Assembly (NCBI RefSeq): GCF_001422405.1
Contig: NZ_LMMV01000005.1
Coordinates: forward strand, 1-64,000
Direction of reading: 5' to 3'
Source: Pseudorhodoferax sp. Leaf267
GTDB taxonomy: Bacteria > Pseudomonadota > Gammaproteobacteria > Burkholderiales > Burkholderiaceae_C
Length of the DNA: 64,000 bases
The position numbers and the translations under genes are program-made. The notes under the pieces are model-generated. The model saw only the letters and a program-made list of their open reading frames with translations, ran no database searches and had not been told where the DNA came from. This document shows, piece after piece, positions 9,267 to 20,226 of this stretch (positions within the stretch are counted from its first letter, which is position 1; every line of letters begins with the position of its first letter).

Positions 9267-9309
9267 ACGGATTTCCGTCCGTTCCAGGCGCATGCGAACG
9301 GGAATCCGC
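9267..9309 (+). promoter_or_regulatory. Tandem activator sites upstream of binding-protein gene
   Basis: Two palindromes, ACGGATTTCCGT (9267-9278) and ACGGGAATCCGC (9298-9309), fit ACGG-N4-CCGY and lie 31 bp centre to centre, about three helical turns. They end 56 bp upstream of a -24/-12 promoter. The same paired motif occurs at two other promoters flanking the two-component operon. The core CGG-N4-CCG matches the AauR site TTCGG-N4-CCGAA as I recall it for Pseudomonas. Binding is inferred. Confidence 0.7.
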
Positions 9310-9365
9310 CAGCCGCCGCCGGCTGTGCAGGAACGATTCCCCGGTGGCGCACTCCAAGAGCTGCG

Positions 9366-9381
9366 TGGCATGCAACCTGCT
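9366..9381 (+). promoter_or_regulatory. Sigma-54 (-24/-12) promoter
   Basis: TGGCATGCAACCTGCT has GG and GC separated by exactly 10 nt and matches TGGCAC-N5-TTGCW at all but two positions. It lies about 82 nt before the start codon of the binding-protein gene, and its paired activator sites are upstream at 9267-9309. Confidence 0.72.
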
Positions 9382-9463
9382 GTTACGTGTGCGTCTGCGG
9401 TCGGGATCCCCCCGCGCCGCGGGTGCGGGGTCTTCCCACGAGCTATCCGATAGGAGTTATTGA

Positions 9464-10360
9464 ATGAACAAGCACATCCTCGCCATCGTCTGCGCCGCAG
9501 TGGCGGCCGGCAGCGCCTATGCGCAGAGCAACGACACGCTGGCGAAGATCAAGTCGAGTGGTGCCATCAGCCTGGGCGTGCGCGACTCGTCCGGCCTGTC
9601 GTACACCCTGGGCAACGGCAAGTACGTGGGCTTTCACACCGAGATGGGCGAACGCATCATCGCGGACCTGGGCAAGGCCGCGGGCAAGGAACTGAAGATC
9701 ACCTACTCGCCCGTGACCTCGCAGAACCGCATCCCGCTCGTGCAGAACGGCACGGTCGACCTGGAATGCGGCTCCACCACGAACAACTCGGCACGTGCGC
9801 GCGACGTGGCCTTCGCCGTCACGACCTACGTGGAGGAAGTGCGCATCCTGACCAAGAGCAACTCGGGCATCCAGGGTGTGAAGGACCTGAACGGCAAGAC
9901 CGTGGCCGTGACGACCGGCACGACCTCCGTGCAGACGCTGCGCAAGAGCGAGCGCGGCACCGACATCGATTTCAAGACGGTGATGGGCAAGGACCACGCC
10001 GACAGCTTCCTGCTGCTCGAATCGGGCCGCGCCGACGCCTTCGTGATGGACGGCTCCATCCTCGCGGCCAATGCCTCGAAGTCGCGCAATGCATCGGACT
10101 ACAAGATGGTCGGCGAGGTGCTGTCGGTTGAGCCCATCGCCTGCATGCTGCGCAAGGGTGACGACGCCTTCAAGAAGGCCGTGGACGACAGCATCAAGCG
10201 CCAGATCGCCGATGGCTCGCTGGCCAAGCTCTACGACAAGTGGTTCATGCAGCCCACGCCGCCGACCAACACCAAGGTCGGCCTGCCGCTGTCCGAGGCC
10301 ACCAAGGCCGCCTGGGCGAACCCGAACGACAAGCCGATGGAAGAGTACGCGGTCAAGTGA
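9464..10360 (+). CDS. gltI: Glutamate/aspartate-type ABC transporter binding protein
   Basis: A 298-residue periplasmic family-3 solute-binding protein. It has a signal peptide (cleavage near AAGSAYAQ-S) and the GltI-type blocks GVRDSSGL, YSPVTSQNRIPLVQNGTVD, LECGSTTNNSARARDVAF and MGKDHADSFLLLESGRADAF. It probably captures acidic amino acids for an ABC importer, but no permease or ATPase gene lies nearby, so it must use one encoded elsewhere. The RBS AGGAG is at 9452-9456. The upstream sigma-54 promoter and activator sites suggest control by the response regulator at 12894-14237. A strong terminator follows. Confidence 0.88.
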   Translation: MNKHILAIVCAAVAAGSAYAQSNDTLAKIKSSGAISLGVRDSSGLSYTLGNGKYVGFHTEMGERIIADLGKAAGKELKITYSPVTSQNRIPLVQNGTVDLECGSTTNNSARARDVAFAVTTYVEEVRILTKSNSGIQGVKDLNGKTVAVTTGTTSVQTLRKSERGTDIDFKTVMGKDHADSFLLLESGRADAFVMDGSILAANASKSRNASDYKMVGEVLSVEPIACMLRKGDDAFKKAVDDSIKRQIADGSLAKLYDKWFMQPTPPTNTKVGLPLSEATKAAWANPNDKPMEEYAVK

Positions 10361-10381
10361 TCGCGCAGCGTTGAAAGGCAC

Positions 10382-10409
10382 AAGGCCGTCCCTCGGGACG
10401 GCCTTTCTT
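10382..10409 (+). terminator. Rho-independent terminator after binding-protein gene
   Basis: AAGGCCGTCC-CTCG-GGACGGCCTT is a perfect 10-bp stem with a 4-nt loop, followed by TCTTCTT, 21 bases after the stop codon. Confidence 0.88.
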
Positions 10410-10432
10410 CTTGCGTGTGCCGCCTGGCGGCT

Positions 10433-10873
10433 TTACTGCGCCGTCACCTTGTAGCGGATGGCAGCCGGGGCGCCGCCGGCGAGATCGCCCTCCTTCACGC
10501 CCCGGAATGCGTTCTCGGCATCGGCACCGGCCTTGGCTGCCGCGGTGACCTGGGCCACCATGGACTGCAGCGCCGTGGCGTCGGCCGCAGTCAGCAGCAC
10601 CTCATAGCGCGCATCGCTGGCCAGGCTGTTGACCGAATTGCCGCCGTTCAGGCCCCGAAGCTGGTAGGCACCTGCCGGCAGCCCCGCGGTCTTCATCTGC
10701 ACGATGGCACGGCCCGCGGCATGGACCGCACTGGTCCGGCCATAGGCGCCGTTGCTGTGGCCGCCAGGAGCCTGGAACTCGACCAGCACGCGACCGGTCT
10801 GCTGCGCGGCCACCGGCGCGGATGCCAGGCTGAACGCTGCGAGGCACAGCAGGGAAGCAATGGTTTTCTTCAT
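10433..10873 (-). CDS. Secreted protein resembling a free-standing M20 lid domain
   Basis: A 146-residue protein with a signal peptide (MKKTIASLLCLAAFSLASAP, cleavage near AAQ). The mature part reads FQAPGGHSNGAYGRTSAVHA, a GRAI helix, then LNGGNSVNSLASDARYEVLL and a helix. This order (GGHSxGxxGxxxAxHAxxRxI, GGxSVNxxxxxAxxxVxL) is that of the dimerisation or lid domain of M20 peptidases, but no catalytic domain is attached. The RBS GAAGGAG precedes ATG 10873. It lies 17 nt downstream of a complete M20 peptidase gene, so the two are co-transcribed. Role as partner, inhibitor or binding protein is unknown. Confidence 0.7.
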   Translation of the reverse strand: MKKTIASLLCLAAFSLASAPVAAQQTGRVLVEFQAPGGHSNGAYGRTSAVHAAGRAIVQMKTAGLPAGAYQLRGLNGGNSVNSLASDARYEVLLTAADATALQSMVAQVTAAAKAGADAENAFRGVKEGDLAGGAPAAIRYKVTAQ

Positions 10874-10890
10874 GGAATGGACTCCTTCGA

Positions 10891-12615
10891 TTACTTGACT
10901 TCGGCCGTGCGCTTGCCGATGGCTGGCGCGGCAGGTGCCACCACGGTGCCGTCGGCGGCGGTGAAGCCGGACGCGATCAGCGCGGCGCTCATGACACGCT
11001 GCATGCGCAGCACTTCCTTGGCCGATTCGCCAGGGATGCCCCATTCCCAGAACGCGTGGCCGCCGCCGCCGGTGGCAGACGTGCCGATGTTCAGGTTGAT
11101 GGTGGGCACGCCGATGGCGGCCGGCACGTTGTCGTTCAGGCTGCTCGCGGCGGTGGACACCTCCTTGAGCTGGTCGACGCCGACGGTTTCGGCGGACTGC
11201 CAGGCGGCCTGGATCGACACGTCGGACAGGTCGGTGCGCTCATGCGGTGGGCGGTCGCCGAACCAGGTCAGCTGCAGCTGGACGGCCTGCGCCGAGTTGT
11301 CGGCCACGCTGAAGCGCGCGTTCTCCTCGGTCACGCCGGCCTGGAACAGGGGCTCGATGCGCGCGCGGATCTCGTTGAGCGGCGCGATGCGCGGCGAGCG
11401 CATGTCGACCTGGATGGTGCAGCTGGGCACGACGTTGCTGCCGGCCACGGGGTCTTCGCAGCTGGCCACGCCCACGGTGTAGGTGGTCTTCAGGGCCGTC
11501 TTGTCGGTGTCCCAGGGCGTCTTGATGTCCGCGATCTTGGCGATCGACGCTGCAGCCGCTTCCACCGCGTTCGGCGTGTTGGGGCCAGGGGCCGTGGGCG
11601 CCGTGTACTTCATCTCGAAGCGGTAGCTGCCGATGAAGTTGATGGTGCCGCTGCCGCCGTCGATGCCGAAGTTCGTCACGAAATTCAGCGGGTTGGTGCC
11701 CGTGCCCAGGTTCTGGTCGTAGCCGTAGAGCTGCTTCATGCCGGCCAGGTTGCCCTTGCCCTCTTCGCCCGCCGTGCCGCAGAACCACATGTCGTAGACC
11801 GGCTTGACGTTGTACTTCTTCATGGCCTTGGCGATGTTCAGCACGCCCGAGACGTTGCCCATGGCGTCGCCATAGCCGGGCACGTAGATGCGCACGGCGC
11901 CGCCGGCCATGGCGGCCTCGGCGTTGGCGTAGTACTGGCGTGCCTTGATGTAGTTGGCGTCCTGCACCACGCGGCCGGTGCCGTCGAACGCCAGCTCGTC
12001 GGCAATGGCGGCAAGTTGGGCCGGTGTCTCCACGATCGGCTGGGCGATGGGCTGCAGCTTGACCGGCTCGTACAGGTAGGTCAGCTTCTCGGGGTTCACC
12101 GTGTCGATGTGGCCCTCGACCAGCACCTTGGGATATTGGCCGCGGTAGGACTGGGCGCCCGGCGAGCTGGAGTACGTGCCCTTGATCTCGGCGCAGATGT
12201 TGTAGACGGGCAGGCCATCGACCAGTTGCACGTCCGACCCGGCCAGCGTGCCGTCGTCGCGCGTCTTGATCTCGCTGGGCAGGAAGCCCCATTCCTGGAC
12301 CATGCGGCGCTTGATCTCGAGCGCGCGGTTGTATTCCTCACGCGACGGCGATGCGATGCGCACCAGCTCCATGTGCTGGTTGAACCGTGCCTGCGTGTCC
12401 GTGGGCGTCTTCCACTCCGCCACGATGGCCTGGATGGTGGCGTCGGTGGCCAGCTTCTGCGCAGCGGACTGCACGGCCGGCGAGATGGTGGGCACGTTGG
12501 GGTTGGTCTGGGGCGGTGGCGCCACTGGCGTGTCGTCGTCGCTGCTGCCGCCGCAACCTGCGATGACAAGGGCCACCGAACAAGCGACCGCACTCAAGTT
12601 GAATCTGTTCGTCAT
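10891..12615 (-). CDS. M20-family metallopeptidase lipoprotein
   Basis: A 574-residue exported lipoprotein. A lipobox (VIAGC, Cys21) is followed by a low-complexity linker. Metal and catalytic residues visible are H169-x-D171 (EGHIDTVN), the bridging Asp in GYGDAMGNVSG (D250), and E284-E285 (GTAGEEGKGN). A lid domain follows around residues 320-460. It is a di-zinc amino- or carboxypeptidase, presumably anchored to a membrane facing the periplasm, releasing amino acids from peptides. A sigma-54 promoter and paired activator sites lie upstream, placing it in the same regulon as the amino-acid binding proteins. The start at 12615 (MTNRF) is chosen from the signal sequence. Confidence 0.85.
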   Translation of the reverse strand: MTNRFNLSAVACSVALVIAGCGGSSDDDTPVAPPPQTNPNVPTISPAVQSAAQKLATDATIQAIVAEWKTPTDTQARFNQHMELVRIASPSREEYNRALEIKRRMVQEWGFLPSEIKTRDDGTLAGSDVQLVDGLPVYNICAEIKGTYSSSPGAQSYRGQYPKVLVEGHIDTVNPEKLTYLYEPVKLQPIAQPIVETPAQLAAIADELAFDGTGRVVQDANYIKARQYYANAEAAMAGGAVRIYVPGYGDAMGNVSGVLNIAKAMKKYNVKPVYDMWFCGTAGEEGKGNLAGMKQLYGYDQNLGTGTNPLNFVTNFGIDGGSGTINFIGSYRFEMKYTAPTAPGPNTPNAVEAAAASIAKIADIKTPWDTDKTALKTTYTVGVASCEDPVAGSNVVPSCTIQVDMRSPRIAPLNEIRARIEPLFQAGVTEENARFSVADNSAQAVQLQLTWFGDRPPHERTDLSDVSIQAAWQSAETVGVDQLKEVSTAASSLNDNVPAAIGVPTINLNIGTSATGGGGHAFWEWGIPGESAKEVLRMQRVMSAALIASGFTAADGTVVAPAAPAIGKRTAEVK

Positions 12616-12729
12616 GAAGACCTTCCGGATGAAGTCCGTGATGCATGGGAAATGCCGGCACGGGCCACATGTGCGCGCCCTGCCGGCAACTGAAGTCGTT
12701 CGCGTGACTGCGCGATGACAGAGGCACTC

Positions 12730-12745
12730 AGCAATGCATGTGCCA
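12730..12745 (-). promoter_or_regulatory. Sigma-54 promoter for the M20 peptidase operon
   Basis: On the minus strand the sequence is TGGCACATGCATTGCT, matching TGGCAC-N5-TTGCW exactly. It lies 114 nt before the ATG of the peptidase gene, with activator palindromes upstream at 12845-12878. Confidence 0.8.
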
Positions 12746-12844
12746 CACGCAGGTCGCTTACAACTCAAGCGAAAAAGTCATGCAATTCAAGGCCCTTGGG
12801 TCAACGCACGTGTTGCATTCGCCAAAGCGTGCCTTTCGCCACAA

Positions 12845-12878
12845 ACGGAAATCCGTTCGCGCCGCAACGGCTTCCCGT
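12845..12878. promoter_or_regulatory. Tandem activator sites for the M20 peptidase promoter
   Basis: ACGGAAATCCGT (12845-12856, a perfect palindrome apart from the centre) and ACGGCTTCCCGT (12867-12878) are 22 bp centre to centre, about two helical turns. They lie about 100 bp upstream of the -24 element on the minus strand and immediately after the response-regulator stop codon. Confidence 0.7.
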
Positions 12879-12893
12879 CGCGGCCCGCGCGGG

Positions 12894-14233
<1,340 letters not shown>

Positions 14234-14237
<4 letters not shown>

Positions 14238-16087
14238 GCGGGGGTGCGCTCCGGGGCTTCGGCCGGCAGCGCCAGCCGGAAGCTGGTGCCGCCTCCGACG
14301 CGGTCTGCGGCCTGGATGTCGCCGCCGAACCCGCGCACGATGTCGCGCGAGATGACGAGCCCCAGGCCCAGGCCGGCGCCGGGCGCCTTGGTGGTGAAGA
14401 AAGGTTCGAACAGTTGCGCGCGCGCTGCCGTGGACAGGCCGCTGCCGTTGTCCTCGACGCAGATCCAGGTCCAGCGCGGGCCGCCCTCGTCCTTGAAGAA
14501 GGAGCCGGCGCGCAGCGTGAGGCAGGGCGCCGGCGTGGACACCATGGCGTCCAGCGCGTTGCCGATCAGGTTGATGAGCACCTGCTCGAGCCGGTTCGCG
14601 TCGCACCAGGCCCAGACCTCCGCCGGCGCGCAGCCGTTGACCACCTGCACCTTCTGCTGGCGCACGCGCAGGCCATACAGGAACAGCGCGTTGCTGAAAG
14701 TCTGGCCGACGTCGACCGCCGCGTGCGTGGCCTCGGACTTGCGCGCGAAGGCCTTGAGCGGCTGGATGATCTTGCCCATCTGGTCGGTCAGCCGCGCGAT
14801 GATCGTGAGGTTGCCGGCCAGCGGGTCCATCTGGCCGCGGCGCAGGAACTCCTCGGCATTGCCCGACAGCGTGCGCAGCGCGCCCAGCGGCTGCGTGAGC
14901 TCGTGCGTAATGCCGGCGGCCAGCTGGCCGATCACGGCCATCTTGGCGGCCTGCACGAGTTCGCTCTGCGTGGCGCGCAAGGTCTGCTCGGCCTGCTCGC
15001 GCTCGCCGACCTCGCGCATGAGGCGCAGGTTCGCGGCGGTCAGGTCCTGCGTGCGCGCGCGCACCTTGGATTCGAGCTCGGCGTTGGCGGCCTCCAGCAG
15101 CCGCCGCGATTCGGCGCGCTGGCGCTGGATGCGCCGGCCCTGCGCCAGGAACAGCGCCAGCAGCACCAGGAAGGACGCCGCCACGGCAGACATGGTGGCG
15201 CCCAGCAGCGCGCCGGAGCGCACGTCCTTCAGGTCCAGGAACAGCATCACGCGCCAGTCCATGCCGTCCAGCGGGCGCGTGAGGATCAGCTGGTTGCCGA
15301 TGCGCTGGCTGTCTTCCTGCGCGAGCTCGGGCACCAGCGGGAACTGCGGGATCTGCATGTCGTTGTACAGGCGGGTCAGCTGCAGGTCCACGCGCCGGTC
15401 CACCGAGAGCGGCGCCAGCGAGGTGTAGCGCCATTCGCTGCGCGAGGAGTCGATCACGATGCGGTTGGCATCGGCCAGCAGGGCCGGCGCGCCCACCATC
15501 TCCCAGGTCTGGGCGATCGGGTCCAGGCTGATCTTGATGGCCGCCACGCCGACCACGTTGGCGCCGTCGCGGATCGGGTGCGAGACGAAGTAGCCCGGGA
15601 TGCTGCCGTCCACGCCGATCGCGAAATGCCGGCCCACGCGGCCGGACAGCGCCTCCAGGAAGTAGGGCCGGAACGACACGTCGTTGCCCAGCAGGCTGTC
15701 GTCCGGGTGGCTCTCGTTGCTGGACGCCACGACCACGCCGCGGTCGTTCAGCGTGAAGGCCGCCAGGCTGCCCACGTGCGCGTTCAGCCGGCGCAGGTAG
15801 AAGTTCGCCGCGGCCACGCGCGCCGGGCTGTCGGGCTCGCGCAGCAGCGACAGGATCTCGCGGTTGAGCTGGATCGTGGCCGGCACGTGCTCGGAGCGCT
15901 TGATCATGCCCTCCACGGCCGAGGCGAACAGGTCCAGCCGGTGGTTGGCGTCGGCCTGCAAGGCGGCCTGGCCGCGGCGTTCGCCCTCGTCGTAGGCGTA
16001 GACCGCGCAGCCCAGCACCAGCGCCAGCGCGGCCAGGGTGGCCAGCACGCGGCGGTACAGGCGAAGGCGCGGTGTGCGGTCGGCCAT
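14234..16087 (-). CDS. Sensor histidine kinase, DctB/AauS-like
   Basis: A membrane kinase of about 617 residues. TM1 is near 13-33, a double-Cache periplasmic sensor spans about 40-290, and TM2 lies near 294-316. A coiled coil (325-380) leads to the HisKA domain with H395 in ITHELTQPLG, then the HATPase domain (NLIGNALDA, EDNGSGL, GLGLGLVISRD). DctB-type sensors detect dicarboxylates, AauS-type acidic amino acids; amino acids fit the neighbouring genes better. The ATG at 16087 is adjacent to a GTG at 16090, and either could start translation. It is 25-28 nt downstream of a binding-protein gene and overlaps the regulator by 4 nt. Confidence 0.92.
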
Positions 16088-16115
16088 CACGCGCGCGCTG
16101 CGGGCGGCATGCGCA

Positions 16116-17000
16116 TCAGTCCACGGGCCGGTCGTTCGGCGCGCGGTACAGCTCGCGCAGCGCCTCGGAGGCCGGCCAGTTCAGGTTCAGCCCGCGCGGC
16201 GGGATGGGCCGCTCGAACCATTTGCTGTAGATGCGCAGTGCCTCGCCGGAGCGCATGATCTCGCGCAGCGCGTCGTCCACGATGCGTTTGAACTGCCGGT
16301 CGCCGCTGCGCATCATGCAGCCGTAGACCTCGGAGGACATGGGCGTGCCGACCACCACCCAGCGCTCGGGCTCCTGCGCCTTGGCGCGCTCGCCGTACAG
16401 CAGGGCGTCGTCCATCATGAAAGCGTCGACGCGGCCGCTTTCGAGCAGCGCGAACGACTCGCCGTGGTCCTTGGCGACCACGATGGTGAACTTGCGGTCG
16501 ATGCCCTCGTTGAAGGTGCGCAACAGGCGTTCGGACGTGGTGGCCCCGGTCACCGCCACGCGCTTGCCGCGCAGGTCGGGGAAGTCGTGGATGCCGGCGT
16601 CGCGCGCGGCCATCAGCCGCGTGCCGATCTTGAAGATGGAGACCGAGAACGCGACCTGGCGCGCCCGCTCGGCGTTGTGCGTGGTCGAGGCGCATTCGAT
16701 GTCGACGGCGCCGTTCTGCACCAGGGCCAGCCGGTTCTGCGGCGTGACGGGCACGAGCTTGATGGTCAGCGCCGGCAGCTGCAGGTCGCGCTTGACCGCG
16801 TCGAGCACGCGCAGCATGAGCTCGTGCGAATAGCCGACCACCTGGCGCCGGCTGTCGTAGTAGGAGAACGGCACCGAGGACTCGCGGTGGCCCAGGTTGA
16901 TGGTGCCGGTGTCGGCGATGCGCTTGAGCGTGTCGATGGGCTGGGCGCCGGCCGCAGCGGCCCAGCAGAGCAAGGTGGTGGCGATCAGGGAACGCAGCAT
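16116..17000 (-). CDS. Amino-acid binding protein encoded with the sensor kinase
   Basis: A 294-residue periplasmic family-3 solute-binding protein. The signal peptide is MLRSLIATTLLCWAAAAGAQ. Blocks HRESSVPFSYYDS, VPVTPQNRLALVQNGAVDIE, CASTTHNAERARQVAF and AKDHGESFALLESGRVDAF match the GltI-like paralogues at 9464 and 18004. It is the first gene of an operon with the kinase and regulator, so it may deliver ligand to the sensor rather than, or in addition to, an importer. The start at 17000 is chosen from the signal sequence. A sigma-54 promoter lies 49 nt upstream, which implies autoregulation. Confidence 0.85.
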   Translation of the reverse strand: MLRSLIATTLLCWAAAAGAQPIDTLKRIADTGTINLGHRESSVPFSYYDSRRQVVGYSHELMLRVLDAVKRDLQLPALTIKLVPVTPQNRLALVQNGAVDIECASTTHNAERARQVAFSVSIFKIGTRLMAARDAGIHDFPDLRGKRVAVTGATTSERLLRTFNEGIDRKFTIVVAKDHGESFALLESGRVDAFMMDDALLYGERAKAQEPERWVVVGTPMSSEVYGCMMRSGDRQFKRIVDDALREIMRSGEALRIYSKWFERPIPPRGLNLNWPASEALRELYRAPNDRPVD

Positions 17001-17048
17001 GGCAAGGCGCCGCAACGAGGAAACGGCCGGTGCAAAGGCGCTGGTGAC

Positions 17049-17064
17049 AGCACGCACCGTGCCA
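17049..17064 (-). promoter_or_regulatory. Sigma-54 promoter of the binding protein-kinase-regulator operon
   Basis: The minus strand reads TGGCACGGTGCGTGCT. The -24 half is perfect (TGGCACG) and the -12 half, GTGCT, keeps the GC at the required 10-nt spacing. It is 49 nt before the start codon. Confidence 0.7.
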
Positions 17065-17141
17065 GCCGCCCGCTGCGCCATGGCCGGTGGCCGCGCCTGT
17101 GGCGGCGCGGCCCGCGCACGGCTGCGTGGCGCGTGCGGGAG

Positions 17142-17183
17142 ACGGTTTTCCGCGCCGCGGCGCCTGGGCCAGCCGGAAATCCG
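17142..17183. promoter_or_regulatory. Tandem activator sites for the sensor operon promoter
   Basis: ACGGTTTTCCGC (17142-17153) and CCGGAAATCCGT (17173-17184, core CGGAAATCCG at 17174-17183) are 31 bp centre to centre, the same spacing as at 9267-9309. They lie about 78-110 bp upstream of the -24 element, as expected for an autoregulated enhancer-binding protein. Confidence 0.65.
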
Positions 17184-17193
17184 TGTCACGCCG

Positions 17194-17961
17194 TCACGGC
17201 CGGGCCGCCGCTGCGGCATCGGGCTGCGTGTCGCAGCTGCCCGTGAACAGCAGCTTGCCGTTGTCGCGCACCAGGCGCACGGTGCGCTTGCCGCGGTCCA
17301 GGCGCCACTGGGCGCCGGCGCCGAAGACGACTTCGTGGTTCACCAGGAAGCCCGAGCTGAGCCACTGCCCGTTGACGGCGACCGCGTTCTCGGAAGGGCT
17401 GTAGCGCACCTGCACGCGGCGCGCGGGCTTGCCGGAGTCGGGCCGCATGTCGCAGTACAGGCTGGCACTGTCGGCCGGGCCGCCGTTGCGCACCAGCTCC
17501 TGCGCGATATGCGCGGCGCGGCCCGGGGCGGCGCTGGCTGCGCACGTGAAGTCGGCCACGAAGGCCGTGCCGTCCATCACGTGCACGTCGCCGAACGTGA
17601 GCTGCGTCACGTCGAGCCGGCCGCTGCGGCGCGGCGGCTGCACGAAGGGGGTGTTCTCTTCCAGACGGCCCGAGGGCATGAAGGACGACAGGATGGCGAT
17701 GCGCCGCGGCGTGCGGCAGTCCACCACGTAGTTGGCATAGCCCACCATGGGGCTGGGCTTGCGCGCGTGGACCAGGAAGTAGGTGCCGGCCACGTGGTCG
17801 CGACCCACCACGTCCAGCGAGATCGCGTCCACGCCCACGAGCATCTCGTCGATGCGCTGCACGAGGTGGAAGGGTTGCTGGGGCGTGGCCGGCTGGGCGA
17901 TGGCCACGCCCGGCAAACCGGTGCAAAGAAAAGGGATGGAGCAGAGGAAACGGGGGAGCAT
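17194..17961 (-). CDS. Secreted protein of unknown function
   Basis: A 255-residue protein with a signal peptide (cleavage near GVAIAQ-P). The mature part is beta-rich with several Cys residues (VVDCRTPRR, ADFTCAAS, LYCDMRPD, GSCDTQPD) that could form disulphides. The YxxYVVDCRTxR pattern vaguely recalls adhesin-E-like domains, but I do not recognise the family. It starts 42 nt after the binding-protein gene at 18004 on the same strand, so the two are probably co-transcribed. The C-terminal coding end abuts the 17142-17184 activator sites. Confidence 0.6.
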   Translation of the reverse strand: MLPRFLCSIPFLCTGLPGVAIAQPATPQQPFHLVQRIDEMLVGVDAISLDVVGRDHVAGTYFLVHARKPSPMVGYANYVVDCRTPRRIAILSSFMPSGRLEENTPFVQPPRRSGRLDVTQLTFGDVHVMDGTAFVADFTCAASAAPGRAAHIAQELVRNGGPADSASLYCDMRPDSGKPARRVQVRYSPSENAVAVNGQWLSSGFLVNHEVVFGAGAQWRLDRGKRTVRLVRDNGKLLFTGSCDTQPDAAAAARP

Positions 17962-18003
17962 GGGTATTGCGCCGCACGCCGCCCCCGGGTTGCAGGGGGC
18001 GCG

Positions 18004-18888
18004 CTACATGGCCGGCTTGTCGCTGAACGCCGTGAGATTGTCGCGCAGCTGCTGGCTCATGGGCAGATTCAGGTTGATGCCCTTGGGCGGGATGGGCGAG
18101 ACGAACCACTTGGTGTAGAGCCGCTCGAACGCGCCGGACTTCATCGCGTCGGTGATCACGCCGTCCACCAGCGCCTTGAAGGCCGGGTCGTTCTTGCGCA
18201 GCATGCAGGCATAGGGCTCGACCTGCAGCGCATCGGCCACGACCTCCAGGCTGGCCGGGTCCTTGGAGTTGGCCATCAGGCCGAACAGCAGGATGTCGTC
18301 CATGGCGAACGCGACGGCGCGGTCGCTCTGCACCAGCAGCAGCGAGTCGTCATGGTCCTTGCCGAGCACCAGGTTCATGGCCAGGTTGTTGTCCTGGCTG
18401 TACTTGCGGATGACCTGGGCGTTGGTCGTGCCGGTGGTGCTGGCCACGGGCTTGCCGGCCAGGTCGGCGTAGTTCTTGATGTTGGAGGACTTCTTCACGA
18501 GCAGCCGCGTGCCGGTGTAGAAGTGGTTGATGGCGAAGTCCACGTCCTTGCCGCGCGCGGTGTTGTTGGTGGTGGAGCCGCACTCCAGGTCGATGGTGCC
18601 GTTCTGCAGCAGCGGAATGCGGTTCTGCGAGGTCACGGCCATGGTGCCGACCTCCAGGCCGGGCTTGCCCACCTTCTTCTTGACGGCCTCGACGATGGCG
18701 TCGGTCAGGTCCACCGCGAAACCCACCGCCTTGGTCGAGCCGGCCAGGTAGCTGAACGGCACGGACGATTCCCGGTAGGCCACGGTGATCTTGTTGCTGT
18801 CGGCGACTTTCTTCAGCGTGTCGGCCTGGGCGGCGGACAACAGCGCGCAGCCGAGCGCCAGGGTGGTCAGGCGGGCGAGAGGGTGCAT
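18004..18888 (-). CDS. Amino-acid ABC transporter binding protein (paralogue)
   Basis: A 294-residue periplasmic family-3 binding protein. The signal peptide is MHPLARLTTLALGCALLSAA, and the GltI-like blocks are YRESSVPFSYLAGS, MAVTSQNRIPLLQNGTIDLE, CGSTTNNTARGKDVDF and LGKDHDDSLLLVQSDRAVAF. This is the third such protein within 10 kb, with no permease or ATPase gene in the window. ATG 18888 follows AAAGG. It is divergent from the D-amino-acid-dehydrogenase-like gene, with back-to-back sigma-54-like elements between them, so both may respond to the same amino acid. Confidence 0.87.
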   Translation of the reverse strand: MHPLARLTTLALGCALLSAAQADTLKKVADSNKITVAYRESSVPFSYLAGSTKAVGFAVDLTDAIVEAVKKKVGKPGLEVGTMAVTSQNRIPLLQNGTIDLECGSTTNNTARGKDVDFAINHFYTGTRLLVKKSSNIKNYADLAGKPVASTTGTTNAQVIRKYSQDNNLAMNLVLGKDHDDSLLLVQSDRAVAFAMDDILLFGLMANSKDPASLEVVADALQVEPYACMLRKNDPAFKALVDGVITDAMKSGAFERLYTKWFVSPIPPKGINLNLPMSQQLRDNLTAFSDKPAM

Positions 18889-18968: not shown

Positions 18969-18984
18969 TGGCATGCGGCTTGCA
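18969..18984 (+). promoter_or_regulatory. Sigma-54 promoter for the FAD oxidoreductase gene
   Basis: TGGCATGCGGCTTGCA matches TGGCAC-N5-TTGCW with a single difference and lies 30 nt before ATG 19015. It is back to back with the minus-strand element, 7 nt away. No paired activator palindrome is apparent within about 150 bp. Confidence 0.6.
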
Positions 18985-19014: not shown

Positions 19015-20226
19015 ATGGAGGTGTGTGTGATGGGTGCGGGCATCGTCGGGCTGGCGAGCGCCTATGCGTTGCGCCAGGCCGGCCATGCGGTCACCGTGGT
19101 CGACCGCGGGCCGGCCGGCAACGGCGCCAGCGGCGGCAATGGCGCGCAACTGAGCTACTCGTACGTGCAGCCGCTGGCCGACCCCAGCATCTGGCGCCAG
19201 CTGCCCCAGCTGCTCATGTCGACCGATTCGCCGCTCAAGCTGCGCCCGCGGCTGGACCCGGCCCAGTGGCGCTGGGGCCTGGCCTTCCTGGCGGCCTGCA
19301 ACGCGAGCACCTCGCGCGCCAGCACGGCGGCCCTGCTCGACCTGGCCGCACGCAGCCGCGAGGCGTTCGACGCCATGCTGCTGCGCGAGCGGCTGGACTG
19401 CGATTTCTCGGCCACGGGCAAGCTCGTGCTCTACCCGACGGCAGAAGCCTTCGCCGCTGCGCGCCGCCAGCTGGCGCTGCAGCGCGCCCTTGGCAGCGCG
19501 GTGCAACACGCCGTGTCGGCTGCCGAGTGCGTGGCGATCGAGCCGGCGCTGGCGCACTACCAGGGCCGGATCGCCGGCGCGATCCACACGCCCAGCGAAT
19601 GCGCGGCCGATTGCCGCAAGACCTGCGACGGCCTGCACCAGGTGCTGCGCGCGCAGGGCGTGCGTTTCGAGCTCGGCACCGAGGTGCGCGGCTTCGTGCA
19701 GCGCGCGGACGCCGTCGTGGCGCTGGTGACCGCGCGCGGCGACCTGCCGGCCGACGCCTTCGTGCTGGCCTTGGGCCCCCAGACGCCGCGCCTGGCGCGC
19801 CAGCTGGGGCTGCGGCTGCCGATCTACCCGCTCAAGGGCTACAGCGTGACGCTGCCCGTGGGCCAGGCCGCCGCGCCGCGCGTGAGCGTGACCGACAGCG
19901 CGCGCAAGACGGTGTTCGCGCGGCTCGGCGACCGGCTGCGCGTGGCCGGCATGGCCGAGCTGGTGGGCGAGGACCTGCGCATCGCACCCGAGCGCATCGC
20001 GACGCTGCTGGCCTCCACCGAGGCCTTGTTCCCAGGCTGCGCCGCCGTGCCGGACCCGCGGCCCTGGGCCGGGCTGCGGCCGGCCACGCCGACCGGCCTG
20101 CCCATCGTCGGGCGCCAGCCGGGCGGGCCGTCCAACCTGTGGGTCAACAGCGGCCATGGGGCGCTGGGCTTCACGCTGGCCTTCGGCACGGCGGTGCAGT
20201 TGTGCGAGGACCTCGGCAAAGGGTAA
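19015..20226 (+). CDS. FAD-dependent D-amino-acid dehydrogenase-like oxidoreductase
   Basis: A 403-residue DAO/DadA-family enzyme. The N-terminal FAD-binding Rossmann motif is GAGIVGLASAYAL, followed by VVDRGPAGNGASGGNGAQLS; the C-terminal block RPATPTGLPIVGRQPG, then NSGHGALGFTLAFGT, is typical of DadA-like enzymes. It probably oxidises D-amino acids to keto acids and passes electrons to the respiratory chain at the inner membrane. The ATG at 19015 puts the dinucleotide motif at the very N-terminus; the upstream in-frame ATG at 18973 falls inside the promoter. Context ties it to amino-acid scavenging. Confidence 0.85.
   Translation: MEVCVMGAGIVGLASAYALRQAGHAVTVVDRGPAGNGASGGNGAQLSYSYVQPLADPSIWRQLPQLLMSTDSPLKLRPRLDPAQWRWGLAFLAACNASTSRASTAALLDLAARSREAFDAMLLRERLDCDFSATGKLVLYPTAEAFAAARRQLALQRALGSAVQHAVSAAECVAIEPALAHYQGRIAGAIHTPSECAADCRKTCDGLHQVLRAQGVRFELGTEVRGFVQRADAVVALVTARGDLPADAFVLALGPQTPRLARQLGLRLPIYPLKGYSVTLPVGQAAAPRVSVTDSARKTVFARLGDRLRVAGMAELVGEDLRIAPERIATLLASTEALFPGCAAVPDPRPWAGLRPATPTGLPIVGRQPGGPSNLWVNSGHGALGFTLAFGTAVQLCEDLGKG

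What the first reader, a model, noticed from the sequence alone, without database searches (positions are those of the whole stretch)
9267..17184. Three sigma-54 promoters, each with a tandem ACGG-N4-CCGY pair, mark the regulon of an AauR-like activator
Seen directly: six palindromes (9267, 9298; 12845, 12867; 17142, 17173) occur in pairs with 31, 22 and 31 bp centre spacing, that is 3, 2 and 3 helical turns. Each pair lies upstream of a -24/-12 element (9366-9381, 12745-12730, 17064-17049) before a binding protein, an M20 peptidase operon, and the sensor operon itself. The regulator gene between them encodes the GAFTGA sigma-54 activator. The core CGG-N4-CCG matches the AauR site of Pseudomonas as I recall it. 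The phased pairing, which links a peptidase with a putative lid partner to the same circuit, looks undescribed.
Basis: partly seen in the sequence, partly recalled or inferred. Interest (0 to 1): 0.78.

Follow-up and report, generated by a model that had tools for sequence, protein, structure and literature searches.

The report
Acidic amino-acid sensor switches on peptidases
In this bacterium a sensor-regulator pair related to the glutamate/aspartate sensor of Pseudomonas appears to switch on, through paired DNA sites mostly about three helix turns apart, its own genes, two nutrient-binding proteins and two exported peptide-cutting enzymes; the kind of switch is known, but the peptidase targets and the altered DNA code look new.

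Summary
In detail: six CGG-N4-CCG palindromes in three pairs (31, 22, 31 bp), 56-99 bp from a -24/-12 element, before SBP1, the M20 operon and SBP2-HK-RR. The pair as literally written (ACGG-N4-CCGY) is not enriched in the genome; with an A/T centre it is, and 3 of 7 genomic places lie here. A fourth complete unit lies elsewhere, before an exported M14 carboxypeptidase. Strict pairs upstream of sigma-54 elements in related loci are 31 or 32 bp apart in 22 of 26 cases; simulated DNA gave none. A tree groups the two-component system with P. aeruginosa AauSR (0.995). The P. aeruginosa aatJ promoter has the same geometry and its two motifs are in print, so pairing is not new; 22 bp is the exception. 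What looks new: AauSR-type control of an M20 enzyme plus a free-standing lid, and of an M14 carboxypeptidase with Lys at a specificity position; and an operator whose outer base (A, not Pseudomonas T) tracks one recognition-helix residue. Likely function: scavenging Glu/Asp from peptides. All regulation is inferred from sequence.

The parts
9267..9278 (.). activator site ACGGATTTCCGT, distal site of the SBP1 pair
   Evidence: 31 bp pair
9298..9309 (.). activator site ACGGGAATCCGC, proximal site of the SBP1 pair
9366..9381 (+). -24/-12 element TGGCATGCAACCTGCT
9464..10360 (+). SBP1, GltI/AatJ-type binding protein (family 3)
   Evidence: Pfam PF00497 6e-25; 43% to AatJ
10433..10873 (-). SMALL: exported free-standing M20 lid (dimerisation) domain, second gene of the M20 operon
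   Evidence: PF07687 7.7e-4, 19.8 bits, below its cut-off of 21; PDB 7ljh lid 2.3e-8; AF2 model matches 7ljh best, E 6.2e-8
10891..12618 (-). M20-family metallopeptidase, predicted lipoprotein (by eye), related to PahZ2 poly(Asp) hydrolase; lid His missing
   Evidence: PF01546 2.2e-5, 24.9 bits, cut-off 24.6; 7ljh 2.9e-16; alignment
12730..12745 (-). -24/-12 element TGGCACATGCATTGCT of the M20 operon
12845..12856 (.). activator site ACGGAAATCCGT, proximal site of the M20 pair
12867..12878 (.). activator site ACGGCTTCCCGT, distal site of the M20 pair (22 bp, the exceptional spacing)
12894..14234 (-). response regulator, NtrC-type, GAFTGA, Fis-type HTH with KTTLADK (AauR clade)
   Evidence: PF00158, PF00072; tree
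14234..16090 (-). sensor histidine kinase with dCache-like sensor (AauS clade)
   Evidence: PF02518; PF02743 37.8 bits, below its cut-off of 45; tree
16116..17000 (-). SBP2, AatJ-like binding protein, first gene of the SBP2-HK-RR operon
   Evidence: 54% to P. aeruginosa AatJ; NF008063 358 bits, cut-off 375
17049..17064 (-). -24/-12 element TGGCACGGTGCGTGCT
17142..17153 (.). activator site ACGGTTTTCCGC, proximal site of the SBP2 pair
17173..17184 (.). activator site CCGGAAATCCGT, distal site of the SBP2 pair

Best explanation
This is a divergent AauSR-type acidic amino-acid regulon. The sensor kinase (14234-16090) probably detects a Glu/Asp-type signal in the periplasm, perhaps with SBP2, and phosphorylates the response regulator (12894-14234). 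Regulator dimers bind two palindromes on one DNA face (usually 31-32 bp, about three turns; 22 bp, about two turns, at the M20 promoter here), oligomerise and drive sigma-54 polymerase at four promoters: SBP1, SBP2-HK-RR (positive autoregulation), M20-lid, and the unlinked M14 carboxypeptidase with its neighbour. The exported peptidases would free Glu/Asp from peptides and so feed both uptake and the sensor. Shown by sequence: the sites, spacings, promoters, their recurrence and the relationship to AauSR. Inferred: binding, activation, signal, enzyme specificity and the feedback loop.
For: Sites and promoters. A/T-centred pairs enriched. Fourth unit before M14. Spacing in 26 strict pairs: 31 x12, 32 x10, and 22, 28, 30, 33 once each; none in controls. 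Clade with AauSR 0.995. Same geometry at P. aeruginosa aatJ. SBP2 sites are conserved blocks in 5 genomes. M20 promoter: strict pair plus sigma-54 in 6 of 11 copies, a degenerate pair in a seventh. Strict 30-31 bp pairs in 10 of 22 system-bearing genomes against 9 of 178 others. Outer base tracks the helix residue. M20 nearest PDB: poly(Asp) hydrolase; M14 Lys at the CPT-Thr (MTDW) position in 11 of 11. In P. syringae L-Asp and L-Glu induce the aatJ promoter best and AatJ acts with AauSR (PMC7691447, a review, passages).
Against: No binding, expression or mutant data. Protein identity does not separate the window RR (56%) sharply from own paralogues (52-55%). No aatQMP-type match lies in the window, and the gltI-permease locus on contig C22 has no pair within the stretch read. 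Only one M20 pair has 22 bp. At M14 the pair is clean in own and G200, has one mismatch in G201 and G022, and is degenerate (two mismatches) in G069, G175 and G202. 3 of 14 strict pairs in system-bearing genomes have no sigma-54 element within 20-130 bp, two of them in the own genome.
Confidence: 0.8

Rival explanations
1. The pairs are operators of another sigma-54 activator of the same superfamily, for example one of the related regulators on contigs C3 or C7 of this genome.
For: Those paralogues are 52-55% identical to AauR, nearly as close as the window RR; two more distant (DctD-like, label recalled) loci elsewhere also have CGG-N4-CCG pairs 32-33 bp apart near a sigma-54 element (L179 with one mismatch, L189).
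Against: Outer base tracks the recognition residue of the linked AauR-clade regulator; strict pairs concentrate in genomes with this system; the C3 and C7 stretches read show no such pair.
Confidence: 0.08
2. Only the binding-protein and sensor promoters are true targets; the M20 and M14 pairs are coincidental or decayed.
For: The M20 pair has odd spacing; M14 pairs are degenerate in several relatives.
Against: In each of the seven genomes seen to carry both this system and an M20 of this kind, one M20 copy has a pair plus sigma-54 element (in G183 one site is degenerate, and its second copy has none); copies in G079, G188 and G229 have none. M14 lies beside this system in G022, G078, G183 and beside its paralogue in five genus genomes.
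Confidence: 0.08
3. Chance palindromes in GC-rich DNA or coding constraint.
For: The literal ACGG-N4-CCGY pair is not enriched; a one-mismatch 31 bp scan gives 7 places against 4 control matches per strand.
Confidence: 0.01

Closest known systems
AauSR-aatJQMP of Pseudomonas putida, P. aeruginosa and P. syringae (PMC7962211, PMC7386598, PMC7691447: passages only)
   Same: Kinase plus NtrC-type regulator, AatJ-type binding protein, CGG-N4-CCG core, two sites 32 bp apart and a -24/-12 element about 100 bp on (P. aeruginosa copy); tree support 0.995.
   Different: Outer bases mostly A..T instead of TT..AA; no permease match and no ggt or ansB match in the window; M20-lid and M14 targets; kinase only 37% identical.
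PahZ2 poly(aspartic acid) hydrolase (PDB 7ljh; named)
   Same: Only solved relative found by sequence for M20 (2.9e-16) and for SMALL (2.3e-8).
   Different: 7ljh has the lid GGHS in the same chain; here the large protein lacks it (11 of 11) and the small exported lid carries it (10 of 10).
M14 carboxypeptidases (CPT, CPA, CPO)
   Same: HARE, LNRNY, DLHS and TVEMG motifs in all 11 copies aligned; PF00246 4.8e-39.
   Different: Lys at the position of Thr in MTDW of CPT, suggesting acidic C-termini. That this is the CPA-255 specificity position, and that CPO has Arg there, is recalled, not seen.

Membership tests
AauSR two-component system | Regulator with receiver, AAA+ (GAFTGA) and Fis-type HTH, paired with a membrane kinase | tested here: met
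AauSR two-component system | Groups with P. aeruginosa AauS/AauR apart from more distant paralogues | tested here: met
   concatenated tree of 45 systems, support 0.995, midpoint root, no outgroup fixed beforehand
AauSR two-component system | AatJ-type binding protein next to or under the system | tested here: met
   54% identity, SBP2 just upstream of the kinase
AauSR two-component system | CGG-N4-CCG core, paired, upstream of a sigma-54 promoter | tested here: met
AauSR two-component system, strict Pseudomonas type | Full site TTCGG-N4-CCGAA | tested here: not met
   none of the six window sites has it; outer base A in 48 of 64 half-sites and T in 1 of 64 for Ala-type regulators; so filed as a divergent variant of the clade
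AauSR two-component system, strict Pseudomonas type | Controls the aatQMP permease | tested here: not met
   no AatQ/M/P match in the window; no pair in the C22 permease stretch; other permease genes of the genome were not looked for
AauSR two-component system | Responds to Glu/Asp | not testable with these tools
   needs expression data
PahZ2-type M20 hydrolase | Catalytic and metal-ligand motifs of M20 | tested here: met
   HxD, D251, E285-E286 and H521 invariant in 11 copies, D or E at the further ligand position; that these are the ligands is recalled
PahZ2-type M20 hydrolase | Lid His (GGHS) in the same chain | tested here: not met
   0 of 11 large chains, 10 of 10 small chains

The most novel reading that the evidence does not exclude
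An AauSR-type system in this family of bacteria has become a self-feeding acidic-peptide scavenging circuit: it drives a split M20 enzyme, whose lid His comes from a separate exported subunit, and an M14 carboxypeptidase selective for C-terminal Glu/Asp. Its operator code changed through one recognition-helix residue (His/Phe reads T, Asn reads both, Ala/Ser reads A), and when the second copy of the system was lost from this genome its M14 target was taken over by the remaining copy through re-tuned sites.
Probability: 0.35. Interest if true: 0.75.

Novelty: new variant of a known kind. Interest (0 to 1): 0.55.

Why it matters
It would turn an uptake regulon into a harvest-and-uptake regulon, predict substrates for two exported peptidases, give a natural test of how one residue of a Fis-type helix sets operator choice in sigma-54 activators, and offer a case of a target gene changing hands between paralogous regulators.

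Tried and rejected
Literal motif ACGG-N4-CCGY as genome-wide marker: not enriched. Other own-genome pairs: C6:119572 and C27:125258 overlap open frames and have no sigma-54 element within 20-130 bp; C21:112755 has none within 20-260 bp and is a hairpin-rich stretch also seen in G200, with no Rfam match at its gathering score. A class-wide kinase search (14 of 369 genomes with a match, 13 stretches read) gave more distant systems, DctBD-like by recall, and no AauSR locus; a plasmid search then gave a P. aeruginosa copy. Of 18 GltI-type binding-protein matches in the genome ten were read: three are the window's own; the other seven have no pair, even without regard to promoters; eight weaker ones were not read. 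GluSR of Burkholderia glumae (PMC8281045, passages) is described as repressing cell-division genes; no link found. Literature searches: (listings only, except passages of PMC7962211, PMC7386598, PMC6214572, PMC8281045, PMC7691447, PMC10482368). None of what I saw reports AauR control of peptidases, a split M20 enzyme or a helix code for AauR; the library holds open-licence papers only.

Rows dropped or not given. L175 and L176 overlap L068 and L070 and were left out. One search was given 28 systems plus the own M14 stretch; left out were G051 (regulator C-terminus cut off) and G052, G170, G033, G067, G078b, G183b (no pair seen), and the degenerate M20 promoter of G183. Within no half-sites came from P. 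aeruginosa (second site degenerate) or from the paralogue-2 loci of G202, G175 and G069. The 22 genomes called system-bearing rest on the tree for 19 and on kinase identity alone for G052 (61%), G051 (46%) and G008 (48%); the other 22 of the 44 kinase matches (33-40%) were set aside without a tree.
Full report
WHAT IS THERE. Gene order in the window: ftsY (+), SBP1 (+, 9464-10360), SMALL (-, 10433-10873), M20 (-, 10891-12618), RR (-), HK (-), SBP2 (-, 16116-17000), an exported protein without a family (17194-17961), SBP3 (-, 18007-18888) and a DadA-like oxidoreductase (+). The -12 elements end 83, 112 and 49 bases before the start codons of SBP1, M20 and SBP2. Between the nearer site and the -24 element lie 56, 99 and 77 bases for SBP1, M20 and SBP2 (coordinates).

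CHANCE. The pattern as written is too loose: 3 forward and 2 reverse matches against 8 and 7 for the reversed control. All six sites have two A/T at the centre. With that, 11 rows or 7 distinct places are found in 6.53 Mb against 0 and 1; three are these pairs. With exact 31 bp spacing and no mismatch there are four places: SBP1, SBP2, C1:936791 and C27:125258. Allowing one mismatch adds three, none with a sigma-54 element near; the control then has 4 per strand against 7, so mismatch-tolerant scans of this kind are near noise. In the genus, 5 of 6 genomes have strict 30-32 bp pairs, 13 forward and 13 reverse matches against 1 and 0 control matches.

A FOURTH PROMOTER. C1:936790/936821 (31 bp) has TGGCACAGGAACTGCA 90 bp on and, 120 bases beyond it, a 712-residue exported M14 carboxypeptidase followed by a 605-residue lipoprotein-like protein without a Pfam family. 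In G200 the same gene has a strict 30 bp pair plus sigma-54. In G201 and G022 there is a pair with one mismatch (G022 also has a strict 28 bp pair); in G069, G175 and G202 only pairs with two mismatches, 30 or 31 bp apart, each with a sigma-54-like element about 89 bp on (the G202 element was read off the printed sequence). In G078 and G183 the gene diverges from SBP2 across a shared pair. G218, G132 and three partial homologues have none.

CONSERVATION. The kinase was matched in 44 of 200 family genomes at 1e-60. I took 22 as carrying this system (19 by the tree, 3 by identity). By the scans, 15 of the 22 show a strict pair with 30-33 bp (own also 22) upstream of a sigma-54 element of score 13 or more, and two more (G168, G051) a pair with one mismatch; G052, G170, G033 and G067 show none, the first two on contigs ending near the genes, and G008 was not fetched at length. 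Among named relatives, Azoarcus and Leptothrix have strict 32 bp pairs and Ramlibacter has two with one mismatch. Over 38 loci, 26 strict pairs near sigma-54 elements: 31 bp 12, 32 bp 10, and 22, 28, 30, 33 one each. Under equal use of 48 distances the concentration at 31-32 has P about 5e-27, too small because loci are related. In five genus genomes the SBP2 promoter alignment is invariant at all 11 bases of the first core and 10 of 11 of the second while the spacer differs. A family-wide search for 30-31 bp pairs gave 31 rows, 24 distinct places, in 19 of 200 genomes, with 11 control matches in all: 10 of 22 system-bearing genomes against 9 of 178 others (Fisher 1.5e-6), and a sigma-54 element within 20-130 bp at 11 of 14 against 1 of 10 places (Fisher 0.003).

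THE M20 PROMOTER. Of 11 M20 copies examined (ten, one of G200) six have a strict pair plus sigma-54: own (22 bp), G175, G069, G200, G201, G078 (32 bp each). G183 has one good and one degenerate site 32 bp apart; its second copy and those of G079, G229 and G188 have none. G079 and G188 had no kinase match; G229 was not in that sample. The promoter alignment is rough. It suggests that the own-genome proximal site equals the distal site of G175, that the old proximal site has decayed and that a new site arose 22 bp upstream, keeping the helical face; this is tentative.

WHAT KIND OF SYSTEM. The regulator is 56% and the kinase 37% identical to AauR and AauS of a P. aeruginosa copy on a plasmid record (aatJ, aatQMP, ggt, asparaginase, kinase, regulator; gene names by the published PAO1 genes). 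The own paralogues on C3 and C7 score lower (regulators 454 and 451 bits against 497, kinases 288 and 282 against 335). The concatenated tree of 45 systems puts P. aeruginosa and the window together against the more distant ones with support 0.995 (FastTree, midpoint root). The aatJ promoter of that copy has TTCGGAAAACCGAA, a degenerate TTCGGAAGAGCGGA 32 bp on and TGGCATGCATCCTGCC 101 bp further (the second motif was read off the printed sequence). The published PAO1 text places the AauR sites at 233-278 bp upstream of aatJ and names two motifs (PMC7962211, passages), a span that fits 32 bp. So paired sites belong to the known system; no statement on helical phasing was found in the passages searched. 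In P. syringae the review PMC7691447 (passages) says that AatJ acts with AauSR and that L-Asp and L-Glu induce aatJ best, which fits an operon of SBP2 with the kinase.

THE OPERATOR CODE. In the Fis-type helix the residue after KTTL is Ala in the window. Counting outer bases of half-sites in pairs with at most one mismatch: Ala regulators A 48, G 13, C 2, T 1 of 64; Ser A 13, and T, G, C one each of 16; Asn A 23, T 13, C 6, G 4 of 46; His T 11, G 1 of 12. P. aeruginosa AauR has Phe and TTCGG sites. On the tree Ala/Ser appears in at least three places by topology (the own clade, the G036-G007-G154 clade, Vitreoscilla with G170), and the Vitreoscilla sites are mixed, which weakens the rule. The His set is only three systems. 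Half-sites are not independent; Fisher values are descriptive. Which base the residue touches was not tested.

TWO COPIES, ONE LOST. Five of the six genus genomes have a second copy (P2, about 55% to the window kinase), with the M14 operon within about 10 kb of it; the own genome has only the first copy, and G202 only P2. G201 has the same gene set as the window in the same order, except that its M20-SMALL operon is inverted. That M14 carries A-type sites in the own genome while four P2 genomes have T at some outer positions fits a take-over by copy 1, but G200, which has both copies, also has mostly A-type bases at M14, so this is a suggestion only.

THE ENZYMES. By sequence, 7ljh (PahZ2) is the only solved structure found for M20 (limit E 1) and for SMALL (limit E 5), and the AlphaFold2 model of SMALL (mean pLDDT 81) matches the same entry best, followed by other M20-type enzymes. 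The lid motif GGHS is absent in 11 of 11 large chains and present in 10 of 10 small ones. That lid His and Asn complete the active site of the partner chain in M20 dimers is recalled knowledge. The large chain still has a lid-like segment in its model (mean pLDDT 70). M14 has Lys where CPT has Thr in MTDW in 11 of 11; that this position sets specificity (CPA Ile255, CPB Asp255, CPO Arg) is recalled; the paper searched for it did not show it. CPO prefers acidic residues (PMC6214572, passages).

MECHANISM. Signal Glu/Asp or a peptide product, phosphorelay, two dimers on one face, sigma-54 activation, export of peptidases, release of Glu/Asp, binding by SBP1 and SBP2, further signal. Only the DNA anatomy, the relationships and the recurrence are shown.

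Noticed in passing
window 10433-12618: M20 peptidase and small exported lid look like a split M20 enzyme: lid His lost in the large chain (11 of 11), kept in the small one (10 of 10).
   Followed up: partly
window 18969-18984: A good -24/-12 element (TGGCATGCGGCTTGCA) 30 bases before the DadA-like oxidoreductase at 19015, without a site pair of this type.
   Followed up: no
window 9464-18888: Three GltI/AatJ-type binding proteins but no AatQ/M/P-type match at 1e-5 anywhere in the 64 kb.
   Followed up: partly
window 17194-17961: Exported protein (by eye) without Pfam or NCBIfam match between SBP3 and SBP2, also present at that place in G201.
   Followed up: no
L085:6600-6810 and L106:1400-1560: Hairpin-rich stretch alike in the own genome and G200, in the own genome near a gene that looks by eye like a mobile-element methylase; no Rfam match at gathering score.
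   Followed up: partly
L189 and L179: Two more distant systems also have CGG-N4-CCG pairs 32-33 bp apart near a sigma-54 element (L179 with one mismatch), so the geometry may be common to this activator branch.
   Followed up: no
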